A stretch of 64,000 bases of DNA, from the IMG/VR virus record IMGVR_UViG_3300025759_000073, positions 21,076 through 85,075 of that record, one strand, 5' to 3'. Numbering within the stretch: position 1 is the stretch's first letter; each line of letters starts with the position of its first letter. The translations under genes and the position numbers were made by a program. Shown here one piece after another: positions 1 to 18,358 of the stretch. The DNA comes from a virus. The notes under the pieces were generated by a model. It was not told where the DNA came from and ran no database searches. It saw nothing but the letters and a program-made list of their open reading frames with translations.

Positions 1-1133
1 TCTTTACCTTGTGAAAGCAATTCAGAGTGGTTAAGAGTAACAGACTCGCCGGGAATTGGAAGGGTGCTGAATTTCCCTCGAATTTGTCCCAGCATTTCTT
101 TTGAAAGGGCCAAGGCAAACCTTCTAATCCATTGCTTTCCGATTGAGTTGATACTTTCAAATGGAATATTTGCAAATGGAAGAGTGTTCATATTGTTGAC
201 ACCATCAACACCGGAGGGTCGATCTGCGTCATCCTCCCAAGGATCTCCATCTACAGTGAACTCAAACCACATCTTTTTGTTGTTCAAGAGAGAAGGCGGA
301 ATAGGAAAGATCCTAATCTTGTTATTTCTAATCTCATAAGAATAGTTGGACGTTCTGGTTCTGATTGCATCTTCATACTCGGCTGCTTGGGCCTTGTTCT
401 GCCAAACTGGAACCAATTGGAAAGTAGAATCGTCTGCAAACTGACCATATGTACTCAAGTTGCCTGTTGCGCCCAGACCGCCATAATACCCATAAAACCT
501 CCAGATTGCTCTAGGAGAAAGATAATAAACTCTTCTGATCATAATTCTTTTGTTTTGATAATCAATTGTTGCTGGTAGGGAACCAGATCCAACAGAAGAA
601 GAAATTGCTGAGATCAGATCATAATCTTGCACGTCATCTTTCAAAGTAAACGAAGAAGAATAGAAGTTTTGAGTACCTCCAACAGTCGCTTCTGTGGCCG
701 CTGCATCTCCAAACCTCCTAGCATAACCATAAGAAAATTTTGTATACTTTAAAGCCACGTTTCCGCCGCTTAAAGACGAAGAAAGGGTTCCAGCCTTGTA
801 CTCCCCTAAATGATCAAAAGAAGCTGTTGTAGCCCCCAAAGAATCGCCCAGAGAGTTCTTTGCTTGGTGGATGTTTACAAGATAAGAGTATTCAAGTGTT
901 GCTTCTTCATAAGCAGTGTAAACTTGCTTTTCTGATAATTCAATTTCAAGAAGATCTCCACCCAACTTTCGGTAGGTATAATCCACCTGATCTGCCGCTC
1001 CTGATAAGAAGTCGGTGGAATTAAGGTAAATCCCAAAAGGAACTGCTGTGCTTGTTACATTTGCAACAGACCCAGTTTCAGGTAAGATATTTTTGCTTGT
1101 TTGACTAACAGGTGTTAATGTGGGGATAGCCAT
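1..1133 (-). CDS. Structural protein, probable head-tail connector (partial, runs off window)
   Basis: I translated this open frame from the minus strand. It begins MAIPTLTPVSQTSKNIL and stays open for 377 codons to the window edge, so the C-terminus is missing. The start has a GGGAGA Shine-Dalgarno 8 bases upstream. It lies directly downstream of gp23, behind a terminator and a putative late promoter, so it is the first gene of a new late unit. The N-terminal part (LEIELSEKQVYTAYEEATLE) is helical with the look of connector/adaptor proteins, and the rest is beta-rich (KIRIFPIPP, MWFEFTVDG). A neck or head-completion protein (gp13/gp14 type) is my best inference. I do not recognise a named family, so another virion structural role is possible. 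Confidence 0.6.
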   Translation of the reverse strand, partial: MAIPTLTPVSQTSKNILPETGSVANVTSTAVPFGIYLNSTDFLSGAADQVDYTYRKLGGDLLEIELSEKQVYTAYEEATLEYSYLVNIHQAKNSLGDSLGATTASFDHLGEYKAGTLSSSLSGGNVALKYTKFSYGYARRFGDAAATEATVGGTQNFYSSSFTLKDDVQDYDLISAISSSVGSGSLPATIDYQNKRIMIRRVYYLSPRAIWRFYGYYGGLGATGNLSTYGQFADDSTFQLVPVWQNKAQAAEYEDAIRTRTSNYSYEIRNNKIRIFPIPPSLLNNKKMWFEFTVDGDPWEDDADRPSGVDGVNNMNTLPFANIPFESINSIGKQWIRRFALALSKEMLGQIRGKFSTLPIPGESVTLNHSELLSQGK

Positions 1134-1164
1134 TCATTAGATCTCCCGATTCATAAGGTTTTCT

Positions 1165-1173
1165 AATAAATAG
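1165..1173 (-). promoter_or_regulatory. Putative late promoter element CTATTTATT
   Basis: The minus strand reads CTATTTATT, 32 bases upstream of the start codon at 1133 and just downstream of the gp23 terminator. The same element at nearly the same spacing precedes the starts at 4124, 14049, 26185 and 35056. Assignment to the gp55-like sigma encoded at 62538-63263 is inference. Confidence 0.6.
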
Positions 1174-1179
1174 TTGAAG

Positions 1180-1216
1180 ACAAAAGAAAACCCCCAACCA
1201 ACAAAGGAAGGGGGTT
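1180..1216 (-). terminator. Rho-independent terminator after gp23
   Basis: On the minus strand AACCCCC (1216-1210) pairs with GGGGGTT (1195-1189) around a 14-base loop. It is followed at once by TTTTCTTTT. This is a classic intrinsic terminator 42 bases after the gp23 stop codon and immediately before the putative late promoter of the next gene. Confidence 0.85.
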
Positions 1217-1257
1217 AACTCAAAGGAGGAGAACCATATGCTAAACTAAGTTAGCAA

Positions 1258-3024
1258 TTAAGCTCCGCTTTCGCCGTTAAGTCCACGACAAACAACCAGA
1301 CCGTACATATCGGGTCGGACCATTTTCTTGGCGTAACGAGTCATGACACCCTTTCGGGGCACGAAATCTTCGACACCAAAGATGGTCGGGGTCACTTGCA
1401 GGGGCACATAAGGTGCGTACACATAACCGCTTTCAAGGAAGCTAGAGCCTTTACGACCAACAAGAATCACGTTCTTGAGGAAGTAGGGATCAACGTAAAC
1501 GTCAAACTTCTTGGAAAGGCTACCGGTCTTGACAGCACCGATGTCGCCTTTGGCAACATCAGCAGTGACGGAAGCACGGAAACCAGAGGTAAACTCAAGA
1601 ATGTTTGCAATCTGCGGCGAACAAACAATGAAGTTTGCACCACCACGGAGAGTTTTGGTGTGGATCTCTGCGGACACATCGTTGATGGTCTCGACCAGAG
1701 TTTCATACCACTCGGAAACAGTACCGGTGAAGTCTGGAGCAGCGGTATTTGCGCCAACTTCTGCACCGGTGGTTCGGTCCACGAAAAGACCGGGCGAACG
1801 CGACCAGTAGCGGGTAGCAGCAGTAGCACCGTTCACGAGGTCGTTCAGAAGCTCGCGGTCGATTTCAAGAGCAATCTGCTCGGAAAGGATCGAGGTAAGT
1901 TCAACTTCTGCATCCAAGTTGTGGTATGCGTTGAGGTCTTGGCCAAGTTCCGGAGACCATTTTGCTTTGAGCTTTTTGGTCTGTGCCGTAACAGCAATCG
2001 AGTCCACTTTGATGTCGATCTCGGGGATTTCATCTTTGTTGACACTAGAGCCAACATTACCAGTTGACGGAGTAGGCTCTTCCAGACCCCAAGGATCAGC
2101 ACCAACAACAGAACCAATAGAACCACCTGCGTTGAAGTTATCGCGAATTGGCTGATCAATTTCAAGAACACCACTGCTGGTCTTCTTGGTAGCAGCGGCA
2201 GAGTTAGTAGTGACAAAGAAAAGTCTAAGATCGGTGCCGCTTTTGGCGGTCAAGCGACGAATAAGTTTAGTGTTTGCGTTGGTAAACGCATCCGTTGAAG
2301 AGGTCACAACTTGGTTCACGCTGGCACCGGTGGTTGAAAGAGCAGACAGATTGTCATAATCCAAATCAGCGTTAAGCTCTGCTTGGGGGATATCCAACCG
2401 AAGGACATAATGTGTGCTATCAAGGTCAAAAAGATCCGGGTCATAATCCACAAGTTTCTTGTTTGCATCAGTAGCGCTAGAAGTGATTTGCCACTGAGTG
2501 ACAACGGTCAAACTACCAGTTCCAAGTTCGGCAACAATTCGAGGGCTAGAATAAGCACCACCCATCAGGTAAGGTCCGCCATTAGACTCTCCACGAGAGC
2601 CAACAATGTTCACACCGGACTGGATGCCTTTTGCCACTTTGTCAGTACCATAAATAGAGCGAGCAGCGGTATTACCAAATCGGCTAGCTTCATAGGTAAA
2701 GTCCAAGAAGAAGATCAGACCAGAGGGAAGGCTCATGGGCTGAACCGAAACGATATCGTTAGCAACGAGACCGCCAAAGACACGACGAACAATCGGGAAA
2801 GCAACAGCAGAGAAGCCTTCCACATCACCAGCAGCCATCGAGGATGCTTCTTTCAAGAGTTGTTTTGCTTGGTTTTCAAGCAGACGAGACATTGACTGAC
2901 GCTGATAGTCAGAAGTGAGACCTTCGAGAAGACCAGTTCTTTCCCATTTGGAAAGAAGTGCTTTGCCTTCTTGTGCAAGGTCGCGCTCAACAATGCCTTC
3001 TGTCAAAGTTTTCAATACAGACAT
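1258..3024 (-). CDS. 23: Major capsid protein gp23
   Basis: This is the T4-type HK97-fold major capsid protein, which builds the hexamers of the head. The 588-residue length is close to the T4 family (about 520). The N-terminal 59 residues look like the removable prohead propeptide: helical, with LLENQAKQLLKEASSMAAGD at 48-67, where gp21 would be expected to cut after LKE59. A family-typical stretch follows (FPIVRRVFGGLVANDIVSVQ, about 77-96), and the C-terminus has YVPLQVTPTIFGVEDFVPRK. The start is fixed by an AAGGAGA Shine-Dalgarno. It follows scaffold gene 22, with which it shares the promoter at 4157, and it is closed by a strong terminator. Identification is secure from sequence and gene order 21-22-23. 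Confidence 0.95.
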   Translation of the reverse strand: MSVLKTLTEGIVERDLAQEGKALLSKWERTGLLEGLTSDYQRQSMSRLLENQAKQLLKEASSMAAGDVEGFSAVAFPIVRRVFGGLVANDIVSVQPMSLPSGLIFFLDFTYEASRFGNTAARSIYGTDKVAKGIQSGVNIVGSRGESNGGPYLMGGAYSSPRIVAELGTGSLTVVTQWQITSSATDANKKLVDYDPDLFDLDSTHYVLRLDIPQAELNADLDYDNLSALSTTGASVNQVVTSSTDAFTNANTKLIRRLTAKSGTDLRLFFVTTNSAAATKKTSSGVLEIDQPIRDNFNAGGSIGSVVGADPWGLEEPTPSTGNVGSSVNKDEIPEIDIKVDSIAVTAQTKKLKAKWSPELGQDLNAYHNLDAEVELTSILSEQIALEIDRELLNDLVNGATAATRYWSRSPGLFVDRTTGAEVGANTAAPDFTGTVSEWYETLVETINDVSAEIHTKTLRGGANFIVCSPQIANILEFTSGFRASVTADVAKGDIGAVKTGSLSKKFDVYVDPYFLKNVILVGRKGSSFLESGYVYAPYVPLQVTPTIFGVEDFVPRKGVMTRYAKKMVRPDMYGLVVCRGLNGESGA

Positions 3025-3047
3025 TTGTTTTCTCCTTAATTATAATT

Positions 3048-4124
3048 TTAATTTTTAATTCCTGCCAATCTCTTCCAACGACTAGAGATGGCTTCTTCAA
3101 TGGTCTCCTGAGTTTCTTTTCTCTTAGGAGCCACTGTCAACAGACTTCGTTTCTCGACTGCTTCACTCAGTGATTTTGGAGCAGACTTGCCGCTTCCCAC
3201 TGCGTTTTGTGATAATGTCTCAAAAATTATCTTAGCCTGTTCTTCATTCTTGGCGCTTGACAAACTTTCGGCAATCTTTTGTTTTTGCCGCTCATTAAGG
3301 GAGTCGTTCATCAGGGCCTTGTTGGTATACATCAATTTTGTGTTATCTAATTTAACTTTTGCAAAACTTTCTTTCAGTTTCTTAAAGTAATTCTCATATT
3401 TTTTGTTTTTGGCTTCAAGATCTTCAATGATCTCGACTGCTTCTTGCATAATGCCTTGTTGGTGTTCAATCTTATCTTCATATTTTTCTTTGATTGCTTC
3501 AAGATCCATTGCCAATTCCATTTCAGAATCGGTGAAAGCACCAACATGACCTGTGGGTTGAGTTTTATAATCCAAGTGGAACGCTTCTTCTAGGAAAAGA
3601 TCATCATCCAATTCAATTTCTTCTTCGAGTCTTTCTTTACACTTTTCACACTTACAGTCTGAAGGGCATTTGCCTTCTTCAAGTTTTTCTTCTTCGTCTT
3701 CTTCCATATAGACTGCATCTTCGTCTTCTTCCATATAGACTGCATCTTCGTCTTCTTTGTGAGGTCCGCCACAACTGGCTTCTTCCAGAACTTCTGGCTC
3801 TGCAATCAGAAAAGATTTTCTTTCTTCGAGCACACCTTCAAATCTTTTGTTGATTTCTTCTTCCAGTTGTTGAAGGTCAATGGAAACCATTTGAGGCTCA
3901 ATATCAGAAGTCCTATGGGCAAAAGGAATTTCCTCTTCCAATGCCGGTTCCAAGTCGCCATTACCAACTTCTTCGCCAGCAGGCTCTTCTTGTTCCAGAA
4001 GTTGATCCAAAGTAGAACGAACTTCGTCGGAATACTTTTCAATGATTGCTCTTTCAGCGTTTTGAATTGCAACTTCTTTTAATGCTTTTGCATCTACGAT
4101 TGCTTGCTCTAACAAAGAAGACAT
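3048..4124 (-). CDS. 22: Prohead scaffolding core protein gp22
   Basis: This is the T4-type scaffold protein, which fills the prohead and is degraded by gp21. The 358 residues are very acidic, with coiled-coil regions at about 215-280. The C-terminal part carries the family signature (SLNERQKQKIAESLSSAKNE, later PKSLSEAVEK) and ends RWKRLAGIKN, as many marine T4-like gp22 proteins do. It sits directly upstream of gp23. Two oddities: an acidic block with two exact copies of the nonapeptide DEDAVYMEE, encoded by a 27-base tandem repeat, and a cysteine cluster CPSDCKCEKC beside it that could bind metal, which is not expected in a scaffold. The Shine-Dalgarno AGGAG precedes the start, and a putative late promoter lies 33 bases upstream. 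Confidence 0.9.
   Translation of the reverse strand: MSSLLEQAIVDAKALKEVAIQNAERAIIEKYSDEVRSTLDQLLEQEEPAGEEVGNGDLEPALEEEIPFAHRTSDIEPQMVSIDLQQLEEEINKRFEGVLEERKSFLIAEPEVLEEASCGGPHKEDEDAVYMEEDEDAVYMEEDEEEKLEEGKCPSDCKCEKCKERLEEEIELDDDLFLEEAFHLDYKTQPTGHVGAFTDSEMELAMDLEAIKEKYEDKIEHQQGIMQEAVEIIEDLEAKNKKYENYFKKLKESFAKVKLDNTKLMYTNKALMNDSLNERQKQKIAESLSSAKNEEQAKIIFETLSQNAVGSGKSAPKSLSEAVEKRSLLTVAPKRKETQETIEEAISSRWKRLAGIKN
3691..3758 (-). repeat. 27-bp in-frame tandem repeat in gp22
   Basis: Two perfect 27-base copies lie at 3691-3717 and 3718-3744, followed by a partial third copy of 14 bases. The unit encodes nine residues (DEDAVYMEE), so copy-number change would keep the gp22 frame. It probably arose by replication slippage. 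Confidence 0.9.
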
Positions 4125-4156
4125 GTTTTATACTCCTAGTAAACTTAAATTTTATA

Positions 4157-4165
4157 AATAAATAG
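4157..4165 (-). promoter_or_regulatory. Putative late promoter element upstream of gp22-gp23
   Basis: The minus strand reads CTATTTATT, 33 bases upstream of the gp22 start codon, inside the 71-base gap between genes. It matches the elements at 1165, 14081, 26212 and 35085. It would drive the two most abundant head proteins. Confidence 0.65.
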
Positions 4166-4195
4166 TTGTTATTTCTAATAAACACTTTATTTTGA

Positions 4196-4417
4196 TCAAG
4201 AAGAGCCTGTCGGGGCAGTCCATGCTGCCGTTGACATTATTGTTTGTGCTTCTTCTTGTGTTAAAACTGATGCTGAAAGGTTTACAACCCACTGAGGGTC
4301 TAAGCCTTCCCACTCTACAACAGCTAATGTTTCATCCAAAGACTTTCTTACACTGCCCAAATAAGAGAAGTCATAAGATGATAGGTCTGAAGATGAAATA
4401 ATTGCATACTTTGACAT
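4196..4417 (-). CDS. Small conserved phage protein, unknown function
   Basis: This 73-residue protein begins MSKYAIISSSDLSSYDFSYL and has a VEWEG motif and a C-terminal TQEEAQTIMSTAAWT. Small proteins of this appearance occur next to fibre genes in marine T4-like phages, but I know no function. It is the last gene of the head operon that starts at 14049. It begins 2 bases after the lectin-like gene stops and is followed by the gp22 promoter. No membrane segment, signal peptide or catalytic motif is visible. Its position suggests a fibre-associated or assembly role (inference). Confidence 0.7.
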   Translation of the reverse strand: MSKYAIISSSDLSSYDFSYLGSVRKSLDETLAVVEWEGLDPQWVVNLSASVLTQEEAQTIMSTAAWTAPTGSS

Positions 4418-4419
4418 TT

Positions 4420-5226
4420 TTATTCCTCTAACGCGGTGTTGTTATCAATAACTTCACCTGAGTTATAGAGAGTTGTTACCTGATCTGCTGTTAAAACTTG
4501 ACCCCAAAGTGCAAGCTCATCAACAAAGAAATCTTGGTTTGCTGTTGAAGTGTTATTTCTGGCTATTTCGAACTTAGCACTAGTTGGTATCAAAGGATCG
4601 CCAGATGCAGGGTTTCCGGAACGAAGTAGGGTGCCATTTCCATATTGCTTATGTGTGTCTGTTGTTGGATCATAAGTCCAAACAACGTGAAACCAAGATG
4701 TTGCAGCGCTCCATCCAGCGCCGTATGAAAAATCAATACCACCAAAACCAACACTAACACCACTAAACCCAGCGGTACCCCTGTGCATACCGGACACACC
4801 CCAGCCATACGTTGGGCTGCTGTGACCGTATAAACTACCATCTGCAACGTTTCTGTAGTTAGCATTTCCGTTGCCACTGTCGTATATATTCCAAAATGGC
4901 ACACTCGTATTGCCAAACTGAGTTGGAGAAAGGTTGATCCAAGCTGAGACCGAGTATCCCCCATCTATAGCAGAGCCAATTGTAGCATTGTCAGAGGTAG
5001 AGCCGTAATCATTAACGCCGTCGATAACAAGAGAGTAGGAGCCGCCACCTGTGGGGACAGAACCGGTAAAGGCCGGGGAGCCGTTTAGAGTAAAGTCAAA
5101 AGAATTACCAGCATCAGAAGTATCTGAGCCGTCCTGACTTTCAAACTTATAGTAAACAACTGGGAGAATATAACTTGCTCCGCCACCACTAGCTCTACCA
5201 TATATTCCCATTGGCATAGTAAACAT
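4420..5226 (-). CDS. Virion surface protein with LamG/concanavalin A-like domain
   Basis: This 268-residue protein is made almost entirely of a lectin-like jelly-roll (LamG type). The signs are VVYYKFESQDGSDTSD near the N-terminus, YSVSAWINLSPTQFGN in the middle, WFHVVWTYDP, and the closing FVDELALWGQVLTADQVTTL. That last stretch is the typical end of Laminin_G_3 domains. Such domains bind carbohydrate, so a decoration or fibre protein that touches cell-surface glycans is likely. It lies in the late head operon between a fibre-like gene and the small protein at 4196. Two alternative starts exist at residues 4 and 6. The first is kept because an AAGG lies upstream. Confidence 0.75.
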   Translation of the reverse strand: MFTMPMGIYGRASGGGASYILPVVYYKFESQDGSDTSDAGNSFDFTLNGSPAFTGSVPTGGGSYSLVIDGVNDYGSTSDNATIGSAIDGGYSVSAWINLSPTQFGNTSVPFWNIYDSGNGNANYRNVADGSLYGHSSPTYGWGVSGMHRGTAGFSGVSVGFGGIDFSYGAGWSAATSWFHVVWTYDPTTDTHKQYGNGTLLRSGNPASGDPLIPTSAKFEIARNNTSTANQDFFVDELALWGQVLTADQVTTLYNSGEVIDNNTALEE

Positions 5227-5237
5227 GATATCTTACC

Positions 5238-6071
5238 TTATGCGCTTGAAGAGAAGTTGTTAACAGCGGAGCAAAGAAGTGAGCCGCCATCAACATCTCC
5301 TGTATAAATGCAAGAAACAACGTCAACAGCATTTGCGGCTTCTGTCAAGGTAGGGAGCGTACCTCCCGGAAACAAATACTTTGAACCAAATGTTAACGCC
5401 CTAGAGCCTGTTTCGTCTTGTTTGAAAATAAAGTTGTATACTCCACCGTCTTGGCCGTTGGTTGGGTTTGACATTGTTACATTAGTGGCATTAACAAAGA
5501 AAATTTGACTTGTTCCGTTGTTTAAGTTAACAGAAACTGAGCCGGAGTTTTCAATTGTTGTTCCATACATCACTGCATATGCCTGACCTGACTCGACAGA
5601 AAGATTGCCCTGCACGGAAGTTGTTCCCAAGTTTGTTGCACCTAAAGTGGTAGCGCCATCGACACCCAAAGATCCAGTGATTTGAGTCCCAGAGGACGCA
5701 CTTAGCTGAACCGAGCCTAACTCTGAATGTAGAGCGATAGACGCGGAGCCTGAAAGTCCGACAGACTCTGCTGCCAATTCAGCAATCGTAGATCCGTTAA
5801 GATAGGCTGCGGCGGCGGCGTTGATCTGAAGCTGGTTGGCATCTGCTTGGATGTTGTTTCCACCTTCAACGCCGGAATAAAGATAAAGAGTTGCCGGAGT
5901 TTCAAATTCCCCAACAGCACCAGTCAAAGAAAGGTGTTTGTTTTCCACAGCAACAGAAGATTCTGATACTTTAAAATTTTGACTTCCTGATAAGGTGGTG
6001 CCGGTTGAAACATGTTGCACCGCTCCTGCGCCACCAACACCATCTACCTCTGCACCCTGTTTATAAGCCAT
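5238..6071 (-). CDS. Fibre-like structural protein
   Basis: This 277-residue protein is rich in Gly, Ser, Thr and Ala, with short repetitive beta-type segments (about residues 60-170, such as GSLGVDGATTLGATNLGTTS) typical of trimeric phage fibres. The C-terminal 90 residues form a knob-like block with FIFKQDETGSRALTFGSKYL and PTLTEAANAVDVVSCIYTGD, a pattern common at the ends of marine phage fibre and capsid-decoration proteins. It sits among surface proteins in the late head operon, so a head fibre or short tail fibre is the best guess. No enzymatic motif is visible. Confidence 0.65.
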   Translation of the reverse strand: MAYKQGAEVDGVGGAGAVQHVSTGTTLSGSQNFKVSESSVAVENKHLSLTGAVGEFETPATLYLYSGVEGGNNIQADANQLQINAAAAAYLNGSTIAELAAESVGLSGSASIALHSELGSVQLSASSGTQITGSLGVDGATTLGATNLGTTSVQGNLSVESGQAYAVMYGTTIENSGSVSVNLNNGTSQIFFVNATNVTMSNPTNGQDGGVYNFIFKQDETGSRALTFGSKYLFPGGTLPTLTEAANAVDVVSCIYTGDVDGGSLLCSAVNNFSSSA

Positions 6072-6087
6072 TTTCTATATCCTTTTA

Positions 6088-6582
6088 TTAATAAACAAAC
6101 CAGTTGGAGCCGTTTGTAACAAAGTTGATAGCAGCATAGTTTTTAGTAATCGTGAAGGTTGCTCCGCCATCAATTGTTTCAGAGCCATATGCATCTACAA
6201 CAATGTTATAATCTGCTGCACTTCCTTCGGTGTCTTTAACAATAAGCGCAAATCCGTTCCTAACAGTCGCAGCAGCGGGAAGATTGATTGTAACAGAAGC
6301 CTCAGCAGTGGTTGTTTTAACACCAATCACACGGTCATTTGCAGTGACCGTTGTACTTTCTGTAATTTCTCTAAAATTAAAATTCATATTTTCAACCTCA
6401 AATAAAAAATCTTTTGGGCTTTCTCTCTCTGAAACAATATAAGCATTGTTTCTTTGATGCAACCCTGCTGCTGTTAGCGGCCCAATTGAAAAAGGAACCT
6501 GATCAATCGTCTTATCTCTTTGACTAGAAAGCTCTGCCAAAGTTTGAATAACAAAAGAAGAATCAGTATACCTTCTAGCCAT
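6088..6582 (-). CDS. Fibre-knob-like structural protein
   Basis: Of 164 residues, the last 90 (VTANDRVIGVKTT, then VTINLPAAATVRNGFALIVK and INFVTNGSNWFVY) form the beta-rich block seen at the C-terminus of many phage fibre and decoration proteins. The N-terminal 60 residues (SSFVIQTLAELSSQRDKTID) are more helical and may attach it to the virion or to the neighbouring fibre. It overlaps the preceding gene by one base (TAATG type), implying coupled translation. The function as a head decoration or fibre component is inferred from neighbours. Confidence 0.6.
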   Translation of the reverse strand: MARRYTDSSFVIQTLAELSSQRDKTIDQVPFSIGPLTAAGLHQRNNAYIVSERESPKDFLFEVENMNFNFREITESTTVTANDRVIGVKTTTAEASVTINLPAAATVRNGFALIVKDTEGSAADYNIVVDAYGSETIDGGATFTITKNYAAINFVTNGSNWFVY

Positions 6583-6971
6583 TACTCGTCAATTCCTGAG
6601 CCTGTTAGGGCAAACATTCTAGCGTCATCAATCCTTGTCAATTCTGCAAAAACTTCGTAGGAACCAGCAGCCAAGTTTGGCTCTGTAATGTACATTTTGT
6701 CACATTTAACTTCGAAGCGATATCCTTGCGGCAAAGAACCAGTGTTCTTGACCGTGACATAATGATCTGCTTTTGCGTTAGTGTTGTTTAAAAAATGAAC
6801 ACGAAGATCATTAGCACCTTTGTTAATCACAGTAAATGCCTTTGTGACAAAGGGAAAAGAAATCTCAACAGTTGTATTTTGAGTTAATGCAGAGCCAGTA
6901 ACCCACGGGTGTCCACTCACTTGATAAGACGCGGTGTTTCCAATTCCAGCATCGTAATATTTCCAAGTCAT
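6582..6971 (-). CDS. Structural protein, paralogue of the 17948-18358 product
   Basis: The 129-residue protein begins MTWKYYDAGIGNTASYQVSG and is beta-rich throughout. The same N-terminal plan (MTW..YD.G.G...SYQVS..P..T.S) begins the 136-residue protein at 17948-18358, so the two are paralogues. Middle segments (FTVINKGANDLRVHFL, YRFEVKCDKMYI) suggest a single beta-sandwich domain. Genes of this type recur beside fibre and surface proteins in marine phages. It probably decorates the capsid or anchors a fibre. It starts 4 bases inside the bS21 stop region (ATGA overlap). Confidence 0.6.
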   Translation of the reverse strand: MTWKYYDAGIGNTASYQVSGHPWVTGSALTQNTTVEISFPFVTKAFTVINKGANDLRVHFLNNTNAKADHYVTVKNTGSLPQGYRFEVKCDKMYITEPNLAAGSYEVFAELTRIDDARMFALTGSGIDE

Positions 6972-7216
6972 TTTGATTTATTCCTTTTTCTTGCCTTGAA
7001 CTTTTCGAACTGCTTTGCAGCCTTTCGAGCATCTCTTTCTCTTTGTCTTTGCGCTCTTTCGCGCTTTCTTCTCTTTCTTACAGAAGGTTTAAGATATTCT
7101 TTTCTTTCCCTTGCTTCTTCAACGATCCTTTCTTTTTTGCACTTTTTGATGAATCGCCTAACAAGGTTTTCTTCTGTTTCATTTTTTCTTTTAAAGATTT
7201 TTACATTTGTAGCCAT
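6968..7216 (-). CDS. rpsU: Ribosomal protein bS21 homologue
   Basis: The 82-residue, strongly basic protein matches bacterial small-subunit protein bS21. The N-terminal strand is NVKIFKRKNETEENLVRRFI, followed by KKCKKERIVEEARERKEYLK and a long basic helix (KPSVRKRRKRERAQRQRERD). The usual length is about 70, so only a short C-terminal tail is extra. In bacteria bS21 binds the 30S platform near the anti-Shine-Dalgarno sequence and affects initiation. Some aquatic phages, including pelagiphage HTVC008M, are known to carry it. Here it is inside the late head operon, after the core protein at 7226, with a Shine-Dalgarno AAGGGA. It could bias host ribosomes toward phage messages late in infection (inference). 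Confidence 0.9.
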   Translation of the reverse strand: MATNVKIFKRKNETEENLVRRFIKKCKKERIVEEARERKEYLKPSVRKRRKRERAQRQRERDARKAAKQFEKFKARKRNKSK

Positions 7217-7225
7217 TTTATTCCC

Positions 7226-7621
7226 TTAAATTAGTTTAGACCAGTTTCCCATTCCCGGGAGTGCTGTAATATCAATACCAGCATCATTTGGATCTTGATT
7301 TGCCAAAGGGGAACGGCTGCTTTCCTGAGCAGTCATTGGCTTTGTGTTTTCAAAAACATTCACACCATTGAACCTTTGGCTCCCAATCGAATCCAAAAGC
7401 TTTTTTCTTGCTTCTTGATTTTTTCTATTTTGTTCTTCCACTCTAATCTTTTGAGATTGATTGGTTTTCTTTTCTTCGACAATAACTTGTGCCTTAGCCA
7501 AGCCAATTGCTGTCTCTTGAATAATAGAAGCTAAAAGGCCGTCTTTTGTCAAAGATTCTTCAATAACTTCTTTAACAATGGGTCTGATAATGTTTTTTAG
7601 CTTTTCGAGATTGATCTTCAT
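7226..7621 (-). CDS. Putative prohead core protein with N-terminal tag
   Basis: This 131-residue protein begins MKINLEKLKNIIRPIVKEVI, an amphipathic helix like the tags on other proteins in this window. It continues with a charged coiled region (AKAQVIVEEKKTNQSQK, about 45-75) and ends GMGNWSKLI. It is encoded immediately after the prohead protease (one base gap). In T4 the small core proteins gp67 and gp68 sit beside gene 21, so a head-core role is a reasonable inference. I do not see direct similarity to gp67 or gp68. No catalytic motif is present. Confidence 0.6.
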   Translation of the reverse strand: MKINLEKLKNIIRPIVKEVIEESLTKDGLLASIIQETAIGLAKAQVIVEEKKTNQSQKIRVEEQNRKNQEARKKLLDSIGSQRFNGVNVFENTKPMTAQESSRSPLANQDPNDAGIDITALPGMGNWSKLI

Positions 7622-7622
7622 A

Positions 7623-8222
7623 TTATCCCTTTAAAATATCGTCTAAAAGTGAATTGATTTTTACATTTTTGTTTTCGTGAAGCCTTTGTTTTTCTTCTTG
7701 GAAAAGAAAAGCACCAGAAGTAGAAGGTTCTTGTACAATGTCAAAGCAAATAAGTTGGAAGTCATCTTCTACTAATGTTCTGCCGGCAGACTCAACAACA
7801 GAGCCTAATCCACGCGATGAGATCCCAATCTTAACTCCACCTTCAACCAAAGCGCGAAGAGTTTGACCAGAAGGTGTATTCAGCACTTGCAATTTTCCAT
7901 AAACGTTATTACCATCCCACCAGCAATCAGTAACTTTGTGGGAAACATTGCGAAGGTTAACAACAGAAGAGTCTGGGTGATCTAATTCACCAACTGCTCT
8001 TCCTTCTTCGATCAGTCTGCGGTAAGTGTCCATTTCTCTTTGCAGGATAGGTCGGGGATAAACTCTGCCATTACCATTCAAATGCTCTGCTCTTTGGATC
8101 ACACCAGAAAGAAAAAGAGCACCGTTTTCCCTAACCATTCTTTTTTCCGATTCCGTTAATATATCTTCGCAAACCCCATTGGGGCATAATTCATAAAACT
8201 CTGTTAATAACTTCTTTGACAT
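7623..8222 (-). CDS. 21: Prohead core protease gp21
   Basis: This is the T4-type prohead serine protease, which cuts scaffold, capsid propeptide and packaged proteins, usually after (L/I)xE. The 199 residues match the family length. Visible features are GALFLSGVIQRAEHLNGNGR with VYPRPIL near residues 35-60, the catalytic His in VGELDHPDSS (about 80), and the catalytic Ser in KIGISSRGLGSV (about 135). An acidic residue in the DDFQLICFDIV stretch may complete the triad. Its position between core proteins and upstream of gp22-gp23 fits T4 order. Its presence matters because several tagged proteins in this window could be its substrates. Confidence 0.92.
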   Translation of the reverse strand: MSKKLLTEFYELCPNGVCEDILTESEKRMVRENGALFLSGVIQRAEHLNGNGRVYPRPILQREMDTYRRLIEEGRAVGELDHPDSSVVNLRNVSHKVTDCWWDGNNVYGKLQVLNTPSGQTLRALVEGGVKIGISSRGLGSVVESAGRTLVEDDFQLICFDIVQEPSTSGAFLFQEEKQRLHENKNVKINSLLDDILKG

Positions 8223-8269
8223 TATACAAGTCCCTTTTACTTTTTGAACGCCGCCGCTAGCGGCACGAG

Positions 8270-8326
8270 CTACTTACCTTTACAACAGCGTCGAACTGGT
8301 TGCAATTTCCATTTTTCGTTCCACAT
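8270..8326 (-). CDS. Possible 18-residue mini-ORF (MWNEKWKLQPVRRCCKGK) ending in amber
   Basis: In the 106-base gap before gp21, the minus strand has a strong AAAGGAG Shine-Dalgarno 6 bases before ATG. A short frame follows, encoding MWNEKWKLQPVRRCCKGK and ending in TAG. Past the TAG the same frame continues for ten codons (LVPLAAAFKK) to TAA at 8237. That segment contains a perfect 12-base palindrome, GCCGCTAGCGGC (8252-8263). I know no homologue. It may be a leader peptide, a small Trp/Cys/basic protein, or fortuitous. Confidence 0.35.
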   Translation of the reverse strand: MWNEKWKLQPVRRCCKGK

Positions 8327-8328
8327 AG

Positions 8329-8613
8329 TTAGCTCCTTTCCACTCTTATTCCAGAGTCTCCAAAAAGATTACACAAAACATATGCTGTGCCTGAATTTAA
8401 ACAACCCAAACAAAAGCAATTTGCTATTGTGACATCAAAATTAAATAGTGATACAAAGGGATTTATTGTACACAAAAAAACCCCAACCCAAAAACCGACG
8501 CACATCGGACAATGAAAAAAATGATGCTTTGGACGAATGTTATCAAAAATAAAACCATAAACCAAAATCTGTGTCATTCCAAAACCAACTAGCAAAAAAT
8601 AAAATAAATCCAT
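8329..8613 (-). CDS. Small membrane protein with CPMCVGFWVG motif
   Basis: The 94-residue protein has an N-terminal membrane segment (FYFLLVGFGMTQILVYGFIF) and a second hydrophobic stretch with CPMCVGFWVGVFLCT. This C..C.GFW.G pattern is characteristic of the DUF1360 family of small membrane proteins, whose function is unknown. A further C.C..C cluster follows (ANCFCLGCLNSG). The ATG at 8613 is chosen because AAGGA lies 6 bases upstream and TGATG overlaps the previous stop by one base; a TTG one codon upstream is less likely. Its place in the head operon between portal-side proteins and gp21 is unexplained. Confidence 0.65.
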   Translation of the reverse strand: MDLFYFLLVGFGMTQILVYGFIFDNIRPKHHFFHCPMCVGFWVGVFLCTINPFVSLFNFDVTIANCFCLGCLNSGTAYVLCNLFGDSGIRVERS

Positions 8614-9164
8614 CAATTATCCTTCTCAATGCCCTCATAGACATAGGGCCTGTATCCATAACCATATCCATAATATTTATTAGGAGGAACTGATCCTTGT
8701 CTTTCTTTGTGTGGAACTTCGCCAAGCTCCGTGGACTCTTCCGGTGTTGGATTGGTTAGATCTTCTTCATATTGATCTTCAAAAGTTTCAATAAAATTAA
8801 TATACTTTTCGTTTTCTTTTAGATACTTGTGGATTAGAAAAATAACAACATCGAAAGAATTTAAGTCATCATCTTTTGGCTCTAACAGTTTCGCACCCAA
8901 AGAGTTTGGAACATAGCCGGCTTTAATGGACGTGTAATCTGTTGCACCTTTTTGACATAGATAATTTAAAAACTCATCTTGAATCGGATAAGCGTCTGCA
9001 CCGTGCTCCTGCTTTGCAACGGTGATAACCTTTTTGTTTTTCACATCCAAATGTATATCGAATTCAGGATGACTATTAAACATTAGATCGCCATTCAAGG
9101 TCTTGACGCATTCAATTTCAATCTCTTTATGATAGCCCGGAGGTTGAATTTTAATCTTAAACAT
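8613..9164 (-). CDS. Hypothetical protein in portal-protease interval
   Basis: This 183-residue protein is not recognised. The N-terminal half is beta-type (MFKIKIQPPGYHKEIEIECV) and resembles a small domain that could bind the portal or core. Residues 110-150 are helical and acidic (DVVIFLIHKYLKENEKYINF). The C-terminus is a low-complexity Tyr/Gly tail (NKYYGYGYGYRPYVYEG) with proline, which could be a flexible binding tail. It overlaps the upstream gene by 8 bases. Position between gp20 and gp21 suggests a prohead assembly or core role (inference). Confidence 0.6.
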   Translation of the reverse strand: MFKIKIQPPGYHKEIEIECVKTLNGDLMFNSHPEFDIHLDVKNKKVITVAKQEHGADAYPIQDEFLNYLCQKGATDYTSIKAGYVPNSLGAKLLEPKDDDLNSFDVVIFLIHKYLKENEKYINFIETFEDQYEEDLTNPTPEESTELGEVPHKERQGSVPPNKYYGYGYGYRPYVYEGIEKDN

Positions 9165-9969
9165 TCTTGAACTCTCTTATAAGCTGCTGGATTTTAAGAA
9201 TTTTAAGGACCATTTTGTCGTCAATCTGCTCCGCCTCTTTGAGGGTCTGTTTTACTTTGGAAATCTTATCTTTAACTTGTGGGTTGATCTCTTTTGTTTC
9301 GATCAAACGAAGATCAGCTTCAATTTTTTCCATTTCCTGCTCCAAGAAGAGAACAACCTCAGAATTGGAGCCATCTAGGGAGAAAAGATATCTTTTGATC
9401 AGATCTTTTTGTTCTTCGAAGAGATCTTCTCCGTATTTCTCGTTGAACTTTTTCATAAAAACATCAAAAACAAGATTGTCTGTAACAACTTCTTTCTTTT
9501 CTTGGATTGGTTTCAACATTCCTTTAACAACTTCATTCTCCAACAGAACGCGGTTTTTAACACTCGTATCCCTATTGAAGATCTGTGAAATAGAAGCGAT
9601 TGTTTTGTAATTGGGAAGAAAGTAATTGAAAATACCAGAACCCAACTCTTTGTTCATAAAATTGATCAATCTTGTTTGCTCGTTGAAAAGCTCTTTTTCA
9701 TCAATCTTGTAATTTTTATCTTTCGCTTCGTGAAGAAGACGATGAGCATTGTTCAAAGAACAATTGGTGGTATTGTAAAGAGTCTTATAGGTATCCAATT
9801 GCCTATTCAGACTTGTACCTTTTTTGAAAAACTCTTTAAGACAATCTTTAATCTTTGCAGCCTTCTCTTTATCTTTGTTTAATACTGAGATTGTCATTTC
9901 CCTGACTAAACACTCATAAAGAAAAGCAGTGTTTCTTTTCTTATTATGCTTGAGCTTTTTAGTTTTCAT
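9157..9969 (-). CDS. Putative prohead core/portal-associated protein
   Basis: This 270-residue, almost wholly helical, charged protein begins with a basic patch (MKTKKLKHNKKRNTAFLYE) and ends with coiled-coil sequence (KISKVKQTLKEAEQIDDKM, about 230-255). It overlaps the portal gene end by 11 bases and is followed by the gene at 8613. T4 has the core proteins gp67 and gp68 in this interval. A similar scaffold or core role is likely but not shown by direct similarity. No catalytic motif or membrane segment is visible. Confidence 0.6.
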   Translation of the reverse strand: MKTKKLKHNKKRNTAFLYECLVREMTISVLNKDKEKAAKIKDCLKEFFKKGTSLNRQLDTYKTLYNTTNCSLNNAHRLLHEAKDKNYKIDEKELFNEQTRLINFMNKELGSGIFNYFLPNYKTIASISQIFNRDTSVKNRVLLENEVVKGMLKPIQEKKEVVTDNLVFDVFMKKFNEKYGEDLFEEQKDLIKRYLFSLDGSNSEVVLFLEQEMEKIEADLRLIETKEINPQVKDKISKVKQTLKEAEQIDDKMVLKILKIQQLIREFKNV

Positions 9970-11926
9970 CTTTATTCTCCAATTCTTTCAAGAGCTTATC
10001 CACTTCTCTTGTGTTGTTTATAACATCTGAATAATTAGATCCTTTTCCCTCATACATCCCCCTGCTCGATCTTACAAATGAATTAAAATCTGGAAAGATA
10101 TTCTCTTTAGATCTACTAGCGGAACGATCTGAATACTTTGCTTTGTAGTTTTTCTTTTTTGGAGCCAGTGATGTTCTTTTATCACTGGTGACTGGTTTAT
10201 ACCACTTTCCTTTTGATTTGGAAGTTGTTGTCATTCCATCTTTTTCGTATTTATATTCTTCGTCATCTCTCTTACCCGGGGTAGCTAGCAGCATAGGCTC
10301 TTCTCCACCTCCGCCGGCATCACCGCCTAAATCTAAACCGGTGTCTTCACCACCGCCGGCTTCGCCACCAAGATCTAAATCTAAACCGGTGTCTAATTCT
10401 CCAGCATCTGTTCCGGCAGCATCTCCGCCTAGGTCATCTCCAGCGCCGCCAATTCCACCTCTTTCATTTTCTGCCACTTCTGCTACTTTTTCCAATTCTG
10501 CAATAAACACGCGGTCGTAGAACTGCTCTCTTTCGTTTCTTAGTTGATCTGCCTCGGAAAGGTTGAAAATATTCTCACCAATCCAACGACGAGAGAAGTA
10601 AGTTTCAGTTGCAGATGCAGCAATATCAAACTTGGTTCGCCAGTATTCCAACTCTTGGAGTTCTGCAATTCTGGACGGGTTGCTCAAACGCAGCTTGAAA
10701 GAAACCAGATCTTTGTTTTTGTAGCCTAAAGTGTGAAGGTGAATGATCCCGATCTTTTCCAATTCAGAGATCACCGATCTTTGCAACCTTTGAATTGTTC
10801 TTGCAAAGCGAACGTCTTTTTGCGCCAGAGCGCCTTTTTCGACTTCACCACCAGCCTCTCCGCCGGCAAGGTAAGACTCTGGAACTTTCAAAGCAGCAAA
10901 CAACTTAGCACGAAGATACTTTACATCATCAATATCACCGGTAAACTGACCACCGGCCAAAGAAGAAATGTCAGAGCCAACTCCGTTTCGCACAGGAAGG
11001 AAGTAATCTTCTTCAACAGAAAGAGGGTTATAGCGAAGGTCAACGCGACCGGTGTCAGGGTCAATAACCTGATTTCTTTTCATTTGGGTCATAACCCTTT
11101 GGACATACTGCTCCACTTCCTGCGGAGGAATGTTACCAACTTCAATCTTGAAGATCCTTCTTTCCGGAGAGCGAACAATGCGATAAGCCATCATTGCATC
11201 TTCAATAAGAGTTAATTGTCGCCAAATCCTTCTCGCTGGCTCCAAAACAGAAGTCCCATAGGGAGAATATTTATCATTTCCTAAGATGCGGAAGTGAGCA
11301 ACTTGCCAGTTTTCAAAAGTTAAACCACCCGAGTTCCACTGGTATTGAATATAATTTGGATTTGTTTTATCCAAACCTTCCAACCTTTCAAGCTCGTGCG
11401 TTGGAAGCCCAATGGCATTTGTGATACCTTTTCCTTCTTCGATATCCAAGTAAAGAAAGAAGTCTCCGAACTTACACATCGAACGACACCATCCAAAAAG
11501 ATTAAACTCAACATTCAAAATGTCCATATAAAGCTCTTCTAGAATATATTTAATCTCTTGATTTCTGGTGTCAATTGTTAAAAGATTGTTGATGAAAGTA
11601 GAGGTTGTCATTTCATCTGCGTAAATATCAATGGCTGACGCAATCTCTGGCATATACTCCATTTGCTCGAAGTCTGCGTATCTTTCTGCTCGCCCTTGGG
11701 ATGCAACATAATTGTAGGTTGTATTGGCGAATGGATCGTGAATAGATTTTTTGAATTGCTTACCAGAAGCAGACGTAAAGTTGTACTTATCCATCTGCCT
11801 TCTTCGCTCTTTTCGATAGGTTTGAGAGCGATAATTAACAATCGGACCAGAGAAAAGCCTAGTCAATCTTTGGAAAAGATTAGAATTAGGGTTTCTGTTA
11901 CCTTTATCATTTTTCGGAGCAGCCAT
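9959..11926 (-). CDS. 20: Portal vertex protein gp20
   Basis: The portal ring protein forms the dodecamer at one capsid vertex through which DNA enters and to which the neck attaches. Its 655 residues are longer than T4 gp20 (about 520). Family stretches include YADFEQMEYMPEIASAIDIY (about 85-105), FGWCRSMCKFGDFFLYLDI, YRIVRSPERRIFKIEVGNIP and KYLRAKLFAALKVPESYLAG. The final 160 residues are an added low-complexity extension rich in Gly and Asp (several LGGDAGGG-type repeats, about 500-545), followed by a basic, Ser-rich tail. That extension is unusual for a portal. The gene sits 3 bases downstream of gp17. Confidence 0.93.
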   Translation of the reverse strand: MAAPKNDKGNRNPNSNLFQRLTRLFSGPIVNYRSQTYRKERRRQMDKYNFTSASGKQFKKSIHDPFANTTYNYVASQGRAERYADFEQMEYMPEIASAIDIYADEMTTSTFINNLLTIDTRNQEIKYILEELYMDILNVEFNLFGWCRSMCKFGDFFLYLDIEEGKGITNAIGLPTHELERLEGLDKTNPNYIQYQWNSGGLTFENWQVAHFRILGNDKYSPYGTSVLEPARRIWRQLTLIEDAMMAYRIVRSPERRIFKIEVGNIPPQEVEQYVQRVMTQMKRNQVIDPDTGRVDLRYNPLSVEEDYFLPVRNGVGSDISSLAGGQFTGDIDDVKYLRAKLFAALKVPESYLAGGEAGGEVEKGALAQKDVRFARTIQRLQRSVISELEKIGIIHLHTLGYKNKDLVSFKLRLSNPSRIAELQELEYWRTKFDIAASATETYFSRRWIGENIFNLSEADQLRNEREQFYDRVFIAELEKVAEVAENERGGIGGAGDDLGGDAAGTDAGELDTGLDLDLGGEAGGGEDTGLDLGGDAGGGGEEPMLLATPGKRDDEEYKYEKDGMTTTSKSKGKWYKPVTSDKRTSLAPKKKNYKAKYSDRSASRSKENIFPDFNSFVRSSRGMYEGKGSNYSDVINNTREVDKLLKELENKDEN

Positions 11927-11929
11927 TTT

Positions 11930-13528
11930 TTATCCTTTGTATACCCAGCTAAATTGTTCTTGTTGTTTCGCAGCTTGTCTTGCTTTTCTTTGCAGATCTG
12001 CACTTCTATTATAGTCTTTTTGGCCCGGAACTCTAACATCTAATCCGGATCTTGTTGACATAATCCCACCAATCAAGGCTCTTTTAAAGTCATCGTTTCT
12101 TCTTCCTTGCACAATGGCAGTGTCCCTAACCCAACAGGCAATTGCCAAAGACATTGTAAGGTCATCGTTGTAACCTTTCATCGCCTCTGGGCGACCATTG
12201 TTCCAAACAAACGTTCTTAGCTCTTGTATAAGGCGGTTTGACTTGATATTAAGTAGTTTATTTCTTATGAATTCTTCCAACTTTGCAATGATCAGGGGTC
12301 TGGTCTTATGAGAAGTTGAAAAACCGGGAACAGACCCAGTTCTCGTTTCAGCGGTGAAAGAATCAATATATTCACCTGAACCTTTAATAGAAAAATAAAG
12401 ATTTGGATATCCTGCTTCAATCAATTTTTCTAAAACCGCGTATCCAATGTTGTTATTTTCGACAACCAAAAGAGGATTTCCATATTCCCTTGCAACATCT
12501 TGCAAAAAGGTCGCAAAAAGATCAATTGAAGGCTTCCCGCAGTATTCTGCTACGATGTCCATCTCTTCAACGTCAATAACATGGAAAGCAGAGTGGTCTC
12601 TTCCGTCGCCCCTAGCAACATCTGCCGAGATAAGGTAGTTTTTACCTTTTTCGGCCTCTTTCCAGATCCAATAGTTCCTGTCAAACCCTGACTTGTACTT
12701 TGGAACTGCCACTTTCTTCTCATAATAAGTAAGATCGTCGGCGTGAACAACGGTTTCACCGGAAGCATTGAAAGAGCAAAGGTATTCCTGTGCAATTTTT
12801 CTTTGCGGAAGGTTATTTGTCTCTTTTTTGAACCAATTATCATCTCTTTCAGGGTGGACATCCCATGGCAAAGTGGTCAAAAAGAAGTCGTTTTCGCTGT
12901 TTTCTGCTCCAACACACATTTTGTGGAACCAGTTCCCAACACCCATTGGAGAAGAAAGTGCAATAACGCGACCACCGGTTGAAATTGTAGGATAAAGACC
13001 AGCCCAAAGCTCATCCATATTCTCAATGTGAGCGGCCTCATCAATAACCAAAAGAGAAAGAGCTTCTGAACGACCTGCATCAGCAGAAGTCGCAGATGCT
13101 TTGATTTGTGAGCCGTTTGAAAGTTCAAAAGAAGTTCGGTTGTCAATCTTGATTGATGCAATCCTCATCCAGCTAGGGAGAGAGTTCATCATTTGCTTAA
13201 CTTTTCTAACCAAGTTTCCTGCTGTTTGAAGCTTTGTTGCAATAACAAGAATGTTTTTGTTTTGAGAAAACAACATCATCCAAAGAATATAGGATGCACT
13301 CAAAGTAGAGATGCCCAACTGCCTTGCTTTAAGGATAATGTTGTAGCGATTGTTTTGAAATTCTTTTAAAAGCTCTGTCTGGAAGGGGTAAGTTTTGAAA
13401 GGGACTGCGCCACGAACTGGGTGGACAGTTTTTACATAATTGTTGATAAAATAAACCGGGTCTCTACCTGATTTGAGAATTTCCGCTTTAATTTGTTTCT
13501 TTGAGATTCTTGCAGCATTTTTAGACAT
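11930..13528 (-). CDS. 17: Terminase large subunit gp17
   Basis: This is the ATP-driven DNA packaging motor with a headful-cutting nuclease domain; 532 residues, slightly shorter than T4 gp17. The ATPase domain has ARQLGIST (68-75) as the Walker A-like loop, LLVIDEAAHI (159-168) as Walker B, and LSSPMG (191-196) as the coupling motif. The nuclease domain has SADVARGDGRDHSA, VENNNIG and GYNDDLTMS, supplying the acidic metal ligands. The Walker A variant has Ile-Ser where T4 has Lys-Thr, as in a subset of phage terminases. It precedes the portal gene. No small terminase (gp16) was recognised next to it. Confidence 0.95.
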   Translation of the reverse strand: MSKNAARISKKQIKAEILKSGRDPVYFINNYVKTVHPVRGAVPFKTYPFQTELLKEFQNNRYNIILKARQLGISTLSASYILWMMLFSQNKNILVIATKLQTAGNLVRKVKQMMNSLPSWMRIASIKIDNRTSFELSNGSQIKASATSADAGRSEALSLLVIDEAAHIENMDELWAGLYPTISTGGRVIALSSPMGVGNWFHKMCVGAENSENDFFLTTLPWDVHPERDDNWFKKETNNLPQRKIAQEYLCSFNASGETVVHADDLTYYEKKVAVPKYKSGFDRNYWIWKEAEKGKNYLISADVARGDGRDHSAFHVIDVEEMDIVAEYCGKPSIDLFATFLQDVAREYGNPLLVVENNNIGYAVLEKLIEAGYPNLYFSIKGSGEYIDSFTAETRTGSVPGFSTSHKTRPLIIAKLEEFIRNKLLNIKSNRLIQELRTFVWNNGRPEAMKGYNDDLTMSLAIACWVRDTAIVQGRRNDDFKRALIGGIMSTRSGLDVRVPGQKDYNRSADLQRKARQAAKQQEQFSWVYKG

Positions 13529-13536
13529 TTCAATCC

Positions 13537-14049
13537 TTAAAATGGAGTGTTGTTCTTACCCAAGGCGATAAATCTTTTGGTTGCATCTCTTACGAGGTCT
13601 TCACCATCATCGTAGGGGTTAGGCTCTCCCTTGATATTGTTAATCTTGTAATGCTTGACACATTGAACAAAGTTTCTTTTTCTAGAGACCGACTGCATAA
13701 GAATGTCACACTCACCTTCTTCGGTCAAACGAAGGGAACGACCGGTGTGTTTTTTGTATTCTGTTTGAAGATATTTGACAATATTAGCATAAATCTCTTC
13801 TACTTCTTGTTCGTAGTCACAACTATGAATATGCTTCAGATCGACATCAGCTTGATAAGTGATAACCATTTTATTTCCGTGAAAACGAACTTTAAAGCCG
13901 TCCAAAAGTTGATGCTCTGTATGGGGAACTTCTTGATCTCGTTTCAAGCCCACTTTAATTTTCTCACCAGTTCTAGGATCGTAAGCGCCGTGATAGGTAT
14001 TTGCCAATACTTGGGAAATTCCTCTAACTACTGCTAACATTTCTGACAT
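13537..14049 (-). CDS. Hypothetical protein upstream of terminase
   Basis: This 170-residue protein is the first gene of the head operon, 32 bases downstream of a putative late promoter and 8 bases upstream of gp17. It begins MSEMLAVVRGISQVLANTYH with YDPRTGEKIKVGLKRD soon after. A mixed domain follows (VRFHGNKMVITYQADVDLKH) and the C-terminus has NPYDDGEDLVRDATKRFIAL. The sequence looks conserved in style rather than low complexity, but I do not recognise the family. A packaging-related role, such as small terminase, or a minor virion protein is suggested only by position. A GGAG Shine-Dalgarno supports the start. Confidence 0.65.
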   Translation of the reverse strand: MSEMLAVVRGISQVLANTYHGAYDPRTGEKIKVGLKRDQEVPHTEHQLLDGFKVRFHGNKMVITYQADVDLKHIHSCDYEQEVEEIYANIVKYLQTEYKKHTGRSLRLTEEGECDILMQSVSRKRNFVQCVKHYKINNIKGEPNPYDDGEDLVRDATKRFIALGKNNTPF

Positions 14050-17947: not shown

Positions 17948-18358
17948 TTATCCTACCCCCACTGAGCCTGACCAGTTGTTAGCCAATCTTTGCTTTGGTA
18001 TACCTGTCAACCCTGCAATGACAGAAGCCGAGCATTCATTTAAAGTATCCGACATTAAATAAAGATCTGTTACTTTAAACTCTGCTTCAAAGCTTTCTCC
18101 ATTGTTCAATGTAAAATAATTGTTATCAACCAAACCTTTCACTCCATTTTCAGATATTCCTACCCGAAGAGGCACGTTTGTTGCGCTCCCGTCTAGCGTG
18201 TTGGTAATTACAACAAATCTAGTGACAGACTCAAAAGAAATGTTCTTTGGTGTCGATCCGGACGCTGGTACCGTTAAAGAAGAAGTCAGATAAGGTCTGG
18301 AACTGACTTGGTACGAACCAACGTGACCCAAACCAACATCATATTTTGTCCAAGTCAT
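17948..18358 (-). CDS. Structural protein, paralogue of the 6582-6971 product
   Basis: This 136-residue protein begins MTWTKYDVGLGHVGSYQVSS, sharing the MTW..YD.G.G...SYQVS signature with the protein at 6582-6971. The rest is beta-type (RFVVITNTLDG, NVPLRVGISENG, ESFEAEFKVTDLYLM). In both places the gene neighbours a larger fibre or surface protein, so it may be an adaptor that joins that partner to the capsid. Divergence between the two copies is considerable beyond the first 20 residues. Confidence 0.6.
   Translation of the reverse strand: MTWTKYDVGLGHVGSYQVSSRPYLTSSLTVPASGSTPKNISFESVTRFVVITNTLDGSATNVPLRVGISENGVKGLVDNNYFTLNNGESFEAEFKVTDLYLMSDTLNECSASVIAGLTGIPKQRLANNWSGSVGVG

What the first reader, a model, noticed from the sequence alone, without database searches (positions are those of the whole stretch)
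6968..7216. Ribosomal protein bS21 embedded in the capsid operon
A clear bS21 homologue lies between a core protein and a decoration protein in the late head operon, not in an early takeover region. bS21 acts at the mRNA-binding platform of 30S. The structural genes here have strong AAGGAGG-type sites, so late swapping of bS21 could tune initiation to those messages.
Basis: partly seen in the sequence, partly recalled or inferred. Interest (0 to 1): 0.65.

Follow-up and report, generated by a model that had tools for sequence, protein, structure and literature searches.

The report
Phage ribosomal protein inside head operon
This aquatic T4-like phage carries its own copy of the small ribosomal protein bS21 as a fixed gene of its head-building operon, probably to swap it into host ribosomes late in infection; the general phenomenon is already published, but here the gene proves to be a near-universal part of a large phage group rather than an occasional extra.

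Summary
Window 6968-7216 (-) encodes an 82-aa bS21 above the Pfam and NCBIfam cut-offs, between a prohead-protease module and the scaffold/gp23 capsid genes, in one co-directional operon (TerL, portal, protease, 7226, bS21, 6582, scaffold, MCP). Sampling relatives by the protease instead of bS21, every operon long enough to judge carries bS21 on the same strand: 71/71, 10/10 and 55/55 (overlapping samples, about 128 contigs). A sister head module of Flavobacterium phages lacks it (0/58). The gene is under purifying selection (dN/dS about 0.04) and forms a phage lineage apart from the Pseudomonadota and Bacteroidota bS21s tested, so it does not name the host. Chen et al. 2022 already described phage bS21 beside terminase/portal/protease/MCP with late expression and the ribosome-swap model; Mizuno et al. 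2019 showed a phage bS21 entering 70S ribosomes. What differs here is same-strand operon membership, near-universal carriage, and loss of the Gly at the bacterial helix junction. Verdict: new member of a known kind; most likely a late-expressed bS21 substitute.

The parts
6968..7216 (-). bS21 (rpsU-like), 82 aa; bS21 domain residues 10-59 plus a basic C-terminal helix; net charge +23
   Evidence: PF01165 36.1 bits, TIGR00030 32 bits, PDB bS21 hits; charge
6582..6971 (-). 129-aa protein of unknown function; start overlaps bS21 stop by 4 nt (ATGA), suggesting translational coupling
   Evidence: no confident family; follows bS21 in most relatives
7226..7621 (-). 131-aa protein directly upstream of bS21, conserved partner of the slot (possible head-core protein, unproven)
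   Evidence: homologue found near bS21 in nearly all bS21 loci; no family match
7623..8222 (-). prohead maturation serine protease (S77, gp21-like)
   Evidence: PF03420 E 7e-30; phrog_207 E 2.5e-54
9959..11926 (-). portal (gp20-like)
   Evidence: PF07230 E 1.9e-76
11930..13528 (-). terminase large subunit
   Evidence: PF03237 E 2.6e-8; phrog_2 E 4e-51
3048..4124 (-). 358-aa acidic coiled protein directly upstream of MCP, scaffold-like by position
   Evidence: position; homologues next to MCP in relatives; no family match
1258..3024 (-). major capsid protein gp23
   Evidence: PF07068 E 1.5e-72

Best explanation
The gene is a phage-owned bS21, a fixed member of the head operon of a large group of aquatic T4-like myoviruses. 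It is made together with protease, scaffold and capsid late in infection, and exchanges with, or fills in for, the loosely bound host bS21 at the 30S platform next to the anti-SD. That keeps initiation going, or tilts it towards abundant late phage messages. Shown here: identity, position, same-strand operon, near-universal carriage in the group, purifying selection, a lineage distinct from the tested bacterial bS21s. Shown elsewhere: a different phage bS21 enters E. coli 70S ribosomes; other phage bS21 genes are transcribed with structural genes. Inferred: late timing in this phage, incorporation into its host's ribosomes, and any message preference.
For: bS21 family scores. Gene order protease-7226-bS21-6582-scaffold-MCP largely kept across 79 bS21 loci. 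Ascertained by the protease, bS21 is present on the same strand in 71/71, 10/10 and 55/55 readable operons, on about 128 distinct contigs. Window vs L010: dN 0.010, dS 0.245 for bS21, like protease and portal, while neighbour 6582 has dN 0.63. Core bS21 positions kept (F22, K43, P44, S45, aromatic 41). The annotated RpsU of isolate Microcystis phage Mel-JY01 sits in the same slot. The window uses SD (76% of ORFs vs 15% internal-ATG control), so the platform that bS21 shapes matters to this phage. Literature: PMC6375957, PMC9723584, PMC9578407.
Against: No expression or proteomic data for this phage. In Mizuno et al., E. coli ribosomes carrying the phage bS21 made only about 5% of normal GFP, so incorporation may inhibit translation. 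No stronger SD on structural genes than on others. In other isolates bS21 lies away from head genes: in a replication-type region (Mosig), beside a ClpX-annotated gene (PA5oct), beside IF-3 (Vibrio 2.275.O), so a head location is not required for function.
Confidence: 0.6

Rival explanations
1. Translation shut-off: the phage bS21 enters host ribosomes and makes them poor at host initiation, so its main effect is to inhibit host translation rather than to favour phage messages.
For: Mizuno et al. 2019: 70S with Pelagiphage bS21 gave about 5% of control GFP, while tagged E. coli bS21 gave about 75%. The window protein lacks the Gly at the helix junction kept in 58/59 bacterial bS21s sampled, and AF2 predicts one continuous helix there.
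Against: Late co-expression with capsid genes is a bad time to poison ribosomes the phage needs; the in vitro test used a non-cognate host.
Confidence: 0.15
2. Head protein: a former bS21 recruited as a basic head-core or packaged DNA-binding protein, or as a packaged bS21 delivered to the next host.
For: Invariable slot between protease and scaffold/MCP; strong positive charge (median net +20); Chen et al. 2022 raised encapsidation.
Against: Still scores as bS21 above the equivalog cut-off and keeps core positions; a pure DNA-binding role would not require these. No virion proteomics. [IL]xE-like protease motifs also occur at the same place in most bacterial bS21s (columns), so they give no support.
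Confidence: 0.15
3. Passenger: a gene acquired once and carried along in a conserved operon with little effect.
For: Immuto-like Flavobacterium phages do without it in a homologous module (0/58; none genome-wide by PF01165 in seven records of 126-170 kb).
Against: Present in every readable relative and dN/dS about 0.04.
Confidence: 0.05

Closest known systems
bS21 phages of Chen et al. 2022 (ISME Commun 2:31, PMC9723584)
   Same: bS21 within a few genes of TerL, portal, prohead protease and MCP; proposed late ribosome swap; general trend (prohead protease within ten genes in 310 of 900 bS21 phages)
   Different: There bS21 lies on the opposite strand and the region is not one operon; predicted Bacteroidetes hosts; aromatic residue at the Tyr54 position. 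Here same strand, 4-nt overlap with the next gene, SD-rich genome, R57 at that position
Microcystis phage Mel-JY01 (PP395634) RpsU
   Same: Annotated RpsU in the identical slot: protease, one ORF, bS21, two ORFs, scaffold-like ORF, MCP
   Different: Divergent sequence with the Gly retained; falls outside the main slot clade on a long branch
Pelagibacter phage bS21 (HTVC008M, Mizuno et al. 2019; Mosig EXVC030M)
   Same: Phage bS21; HTVC008M protein shown to enter E. coli 70S
   Different: In Mosig the gene lies near sliding clamp and polymerase genes, not head genes; in the tree it groups with one of the two Pseudomonadota clusters rather than with the head-slot clade
Francisella tularensis bS21 paralogues (PMC9578407)
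   Same: Shows that swapping bS21 versions changes the proteome without matching mRNA changes
   Different: Cellular paralogues, not phage-encoded

Membership tests
bS21 (PF01165 / TIGR00030) | Profile score above curated cut-off | tested here: met
   36.1 vs 27 bits; 32 vs 28.95 bits
bS21 (PF01165 / TIGR00030) | Core conserved positions (F22, R38, Y41, K43, P44, S/T45) | tested here: met
   alignment with 59 bacterial bS21s
bS21 (PF01165 / TIGR00030) | Gly at the helix 1/helix 2 junction (a conserved position, not required by the curated models) | tested here: not met
   R30 in the window; G in 58/59 bacterial sequences, 42/105 phage slot sequences
bS21 (PF01165 / TIGR00030) | Incorporation into 30S subunits | not testable with these tools
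   needs ribosome proteomics
Head-module phage bS21 (Chen et al. 2022) | bS21 close to TerL, portal, protease and MCP (there generally within five genes) | tested here: met
   protease 2 genes upstream, portal 6 and TerL 7 upstream, MCP 7 downstream; slightly wider than five for portal, TerL and MCP
Head-module phage bS21 (Chen et al. 2022) | bS21 on the strand opposite to the structural genes | tested here: not met
   same strand here and in every protease-sampled relative with the gene. So it is not a member of those five clades, though it shares the arrangement
Head-module phage bS21 (Chen et al. 2022) | Late transcription | not testable with these tools
   no RNA data
Bacteroidia-type anti-SD-sequestering bS21 | Aromatic residue at F. 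johnsoniae Tyr54 | tested here: not met
   R57 in the window; aromatic in 3/105 phage slot, 0/29 Pseudomonadota, 8/30 Bacteroidota sequences
T4-like myovirus head module | gp20 portal, gp21 protease, gp23 capsid in order | tested here: met
   PF07230, PF03420, PF07068

The most novel reading that the evidence does not exclude
A virus-owned ribosomal protein lineage: in this large phage group bS21 is a core gene as fixed as the capsid protease, long separated from cellular bS21 and rebuilt at the helix junction (Gly lost in most members), giving a phage-specific initiation platform that late messages need.
Probability: 0.25. Interest if true: 0.7.

Novelty: new member of a known kind. Interest (0 to 1): 0.4.

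Why it matters
Phage bS21 is usually treated as an accessory gene. Finding it in every readable head operon of a large aquatic T4-like group, on the same strand and under strong purifying selection, suggests it is part of the basic late programme of these phages. One isolate with the same arrangement (Microcystis phage Mel-JY01) is in public records, so the ribosome-swap model could be tested in a cultured system.

Tried and rejected
(a) A 'KKERIVEE' phage signature, invariant in the first alignment, is an ascertainment artefact: that peptide was itself a search pattern. In the protease-sampled set only 3 of 106 distinct proteins have it. Dropped, and its near-absence from bacterial genomes is not used as evidence. 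(b) A second weak PF01165 match at window 22465-22599 (16.5 bits, below cut-off) was not recovered by the combined profile or Pfam; rejected as chance. (c) Host from bS21 phylogeny: two bacterial contigs with slot-type bS21 (L082, L083, in MAGs) are themselves phage-like head operons, so they do not name a host. (d) Stronger SD on structural genes: rejected. (e) RNA elements: no Rfam match in 1-14000; no tRNA in the window. (f) L252 and L269 first looked bS21-less; a divergent bS21 was then found 7-8 kb downstream of the protease on the same strand.

Full report
WHAT IS THERE. The window is bases 21076-85075 of an 85,075-base IMG/VR virus record. The ORF at 6968-7216 (-), 82 aa, is bS21: PF01165 36.1 bits (cut-off 27), TIGR00030 32 bits (28.95), and only bS21 among PDB hits. 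The predicted genes with ribosome-binding sites from 1258 to 63876 all lie on the minus strand. In transcription order: TerL 11930-13528, portal 9959-11926, three ORFs, prohead protease 7623-8222, 7226-7621, bS21, 6582-6971, 6088-6582, 5238-6071, a laminin-G-like protein 4420-5226, 4196-4417, a scaffold-like ORF 3048-4124, gp23 MCP 1258-3024. The bS21 stop and the next start share ATGA.

HOW CONSTANT IT IS. A search by bS21 gave 79 loci, nearly all with the same neighbours in the same order and strand. Because that sample is chosen by bS21, I sampled again by the protease. With the window's protease, 71 of 71 loci long enough to judge carry bS21 downstream, none on the opposite strand; the nine others end within 1.3 kb of the protease. 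With the Mel-JY01 protease, 10 of 10. With the protease of a divergent member (L151), 53 of 55 within the locus, and the last two further downstream. About eight contigs occur in two samples, so this is about 128 contigs; the 134 bS21s seen within loci are 106 distinct proteins. A homologous head module around the Flavobacterium phage immuto has none (0 of 58), and seven such records of 126-170 kb have none elsewhere by PF01165; a very divergent form could be missed by PF01165, as L252 and L269 show.

EVOLUTION. Between the window and L010, bS21 has dN 0.010 and dS 0.245, as constrained as protease and portal, whereas 6582 has dN 0.63 (one pair, 82 codons). In a tree of 124 sequences the slot bS21s form one group against Pseudomonadota and Bacteroidota (support 99/94), with Mel-JY01 outside on a long branch beside another long branch. 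Only 80 columns and two bacterial phyla were used, so origin and host stay open.

SEQUENCE AND STRUCTURE. The core F22, R38, Y41, K43, P44, S45 is kept. The Gly at the helix junction, present in 58 of 59 bacterial sequences, is R30 here and is present in 42 of 105 phage slot sequences. AF2 predicts a continuous helix 15-37 for the window protein and a break at Gly27 for an enterobacterial-type bS21; both are models of a protein that folds on rRNA, so this is a hint. The position of F. johnsoniae Tyr54 is R57, so it is not of the Bacteroidia anti-SD-sequestering type.

SHINE-DALGARNO. With starts taken as the longest ATG, 76% of window ORFs of 150 aa or more have an SD core against 15% before internal ATGs; the immuto clade has 4%. 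The window's host therefore probably uses SD. The bS21-bearing modules are SD-using and the immuto module is not, but this is one contrast between clades. Structural and other window genes have equal SD strength (p=0.61; starts there were picked partly by SD).

MECHANISM. Most likely (0.6) a late-made bS21 that substitutes in host 30S subunits. Precedents: phage bS21 enters E. coli 70S but such ribosomes gave about 5% activity (PMC6375957); phage bS21 transcribed with structural genes (PMC9723584); bS21 paralogues change the proteome in Francisella (PMC9578407). Shut-off and head-protein roles remain possible.

KNOWN OR NEW. Location and model were published in 2022. Not found in the papers read: same-strand operon membership, near-universal carriage in a protease-sampled group, and frequent loss of the junction Gly. 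I file it as a new member of a known kind.

Noticed in passing
window 6582-6971 and 17948-18358: These two proteins look like paralogues (both begin MTWxxYDxGxGxxxSYQVS); the first evolves very fast between the window and L010 (dN 0.63) beside a nearly frozen bS21.
   Followed up: partly
L329-L408 versus L084-L163: Homologous head modules with opposite translation signals: the immuto-like Flavobacterium phages have almost no SD cores (4%, below the 23% control) and no bS21; the bS21-bearing group has 71-76%.
   Followed up: partly
L237 7406-8637 (Vibrio phage 2.275.O): A phage cluster of IF-3, bS21 (RpsU3) and an L7/L12/ClpS-like protein side by side.
   Followed up: no
L048 5950-6309: A bS21 with an internal duplication of about 40 residues (EEAKDRRYYKKPSVRKREEQ... 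twice), 119 aa.
   Followed up: no
L173 11729-12001 (LR756508, 484-kb phage): A divergent bS21-like ORF directly upstream of the scaffold/MCP in an unannotated huge phage (E 5e-6 with the phage bS21 profile).
   Followed up: no
window 26228-29377: One 1049-aa protein with metallophosphoesterase and SMC N-terminal matches, like a fusion of recombination proteins gp47 and gp46.
   Followed up: no
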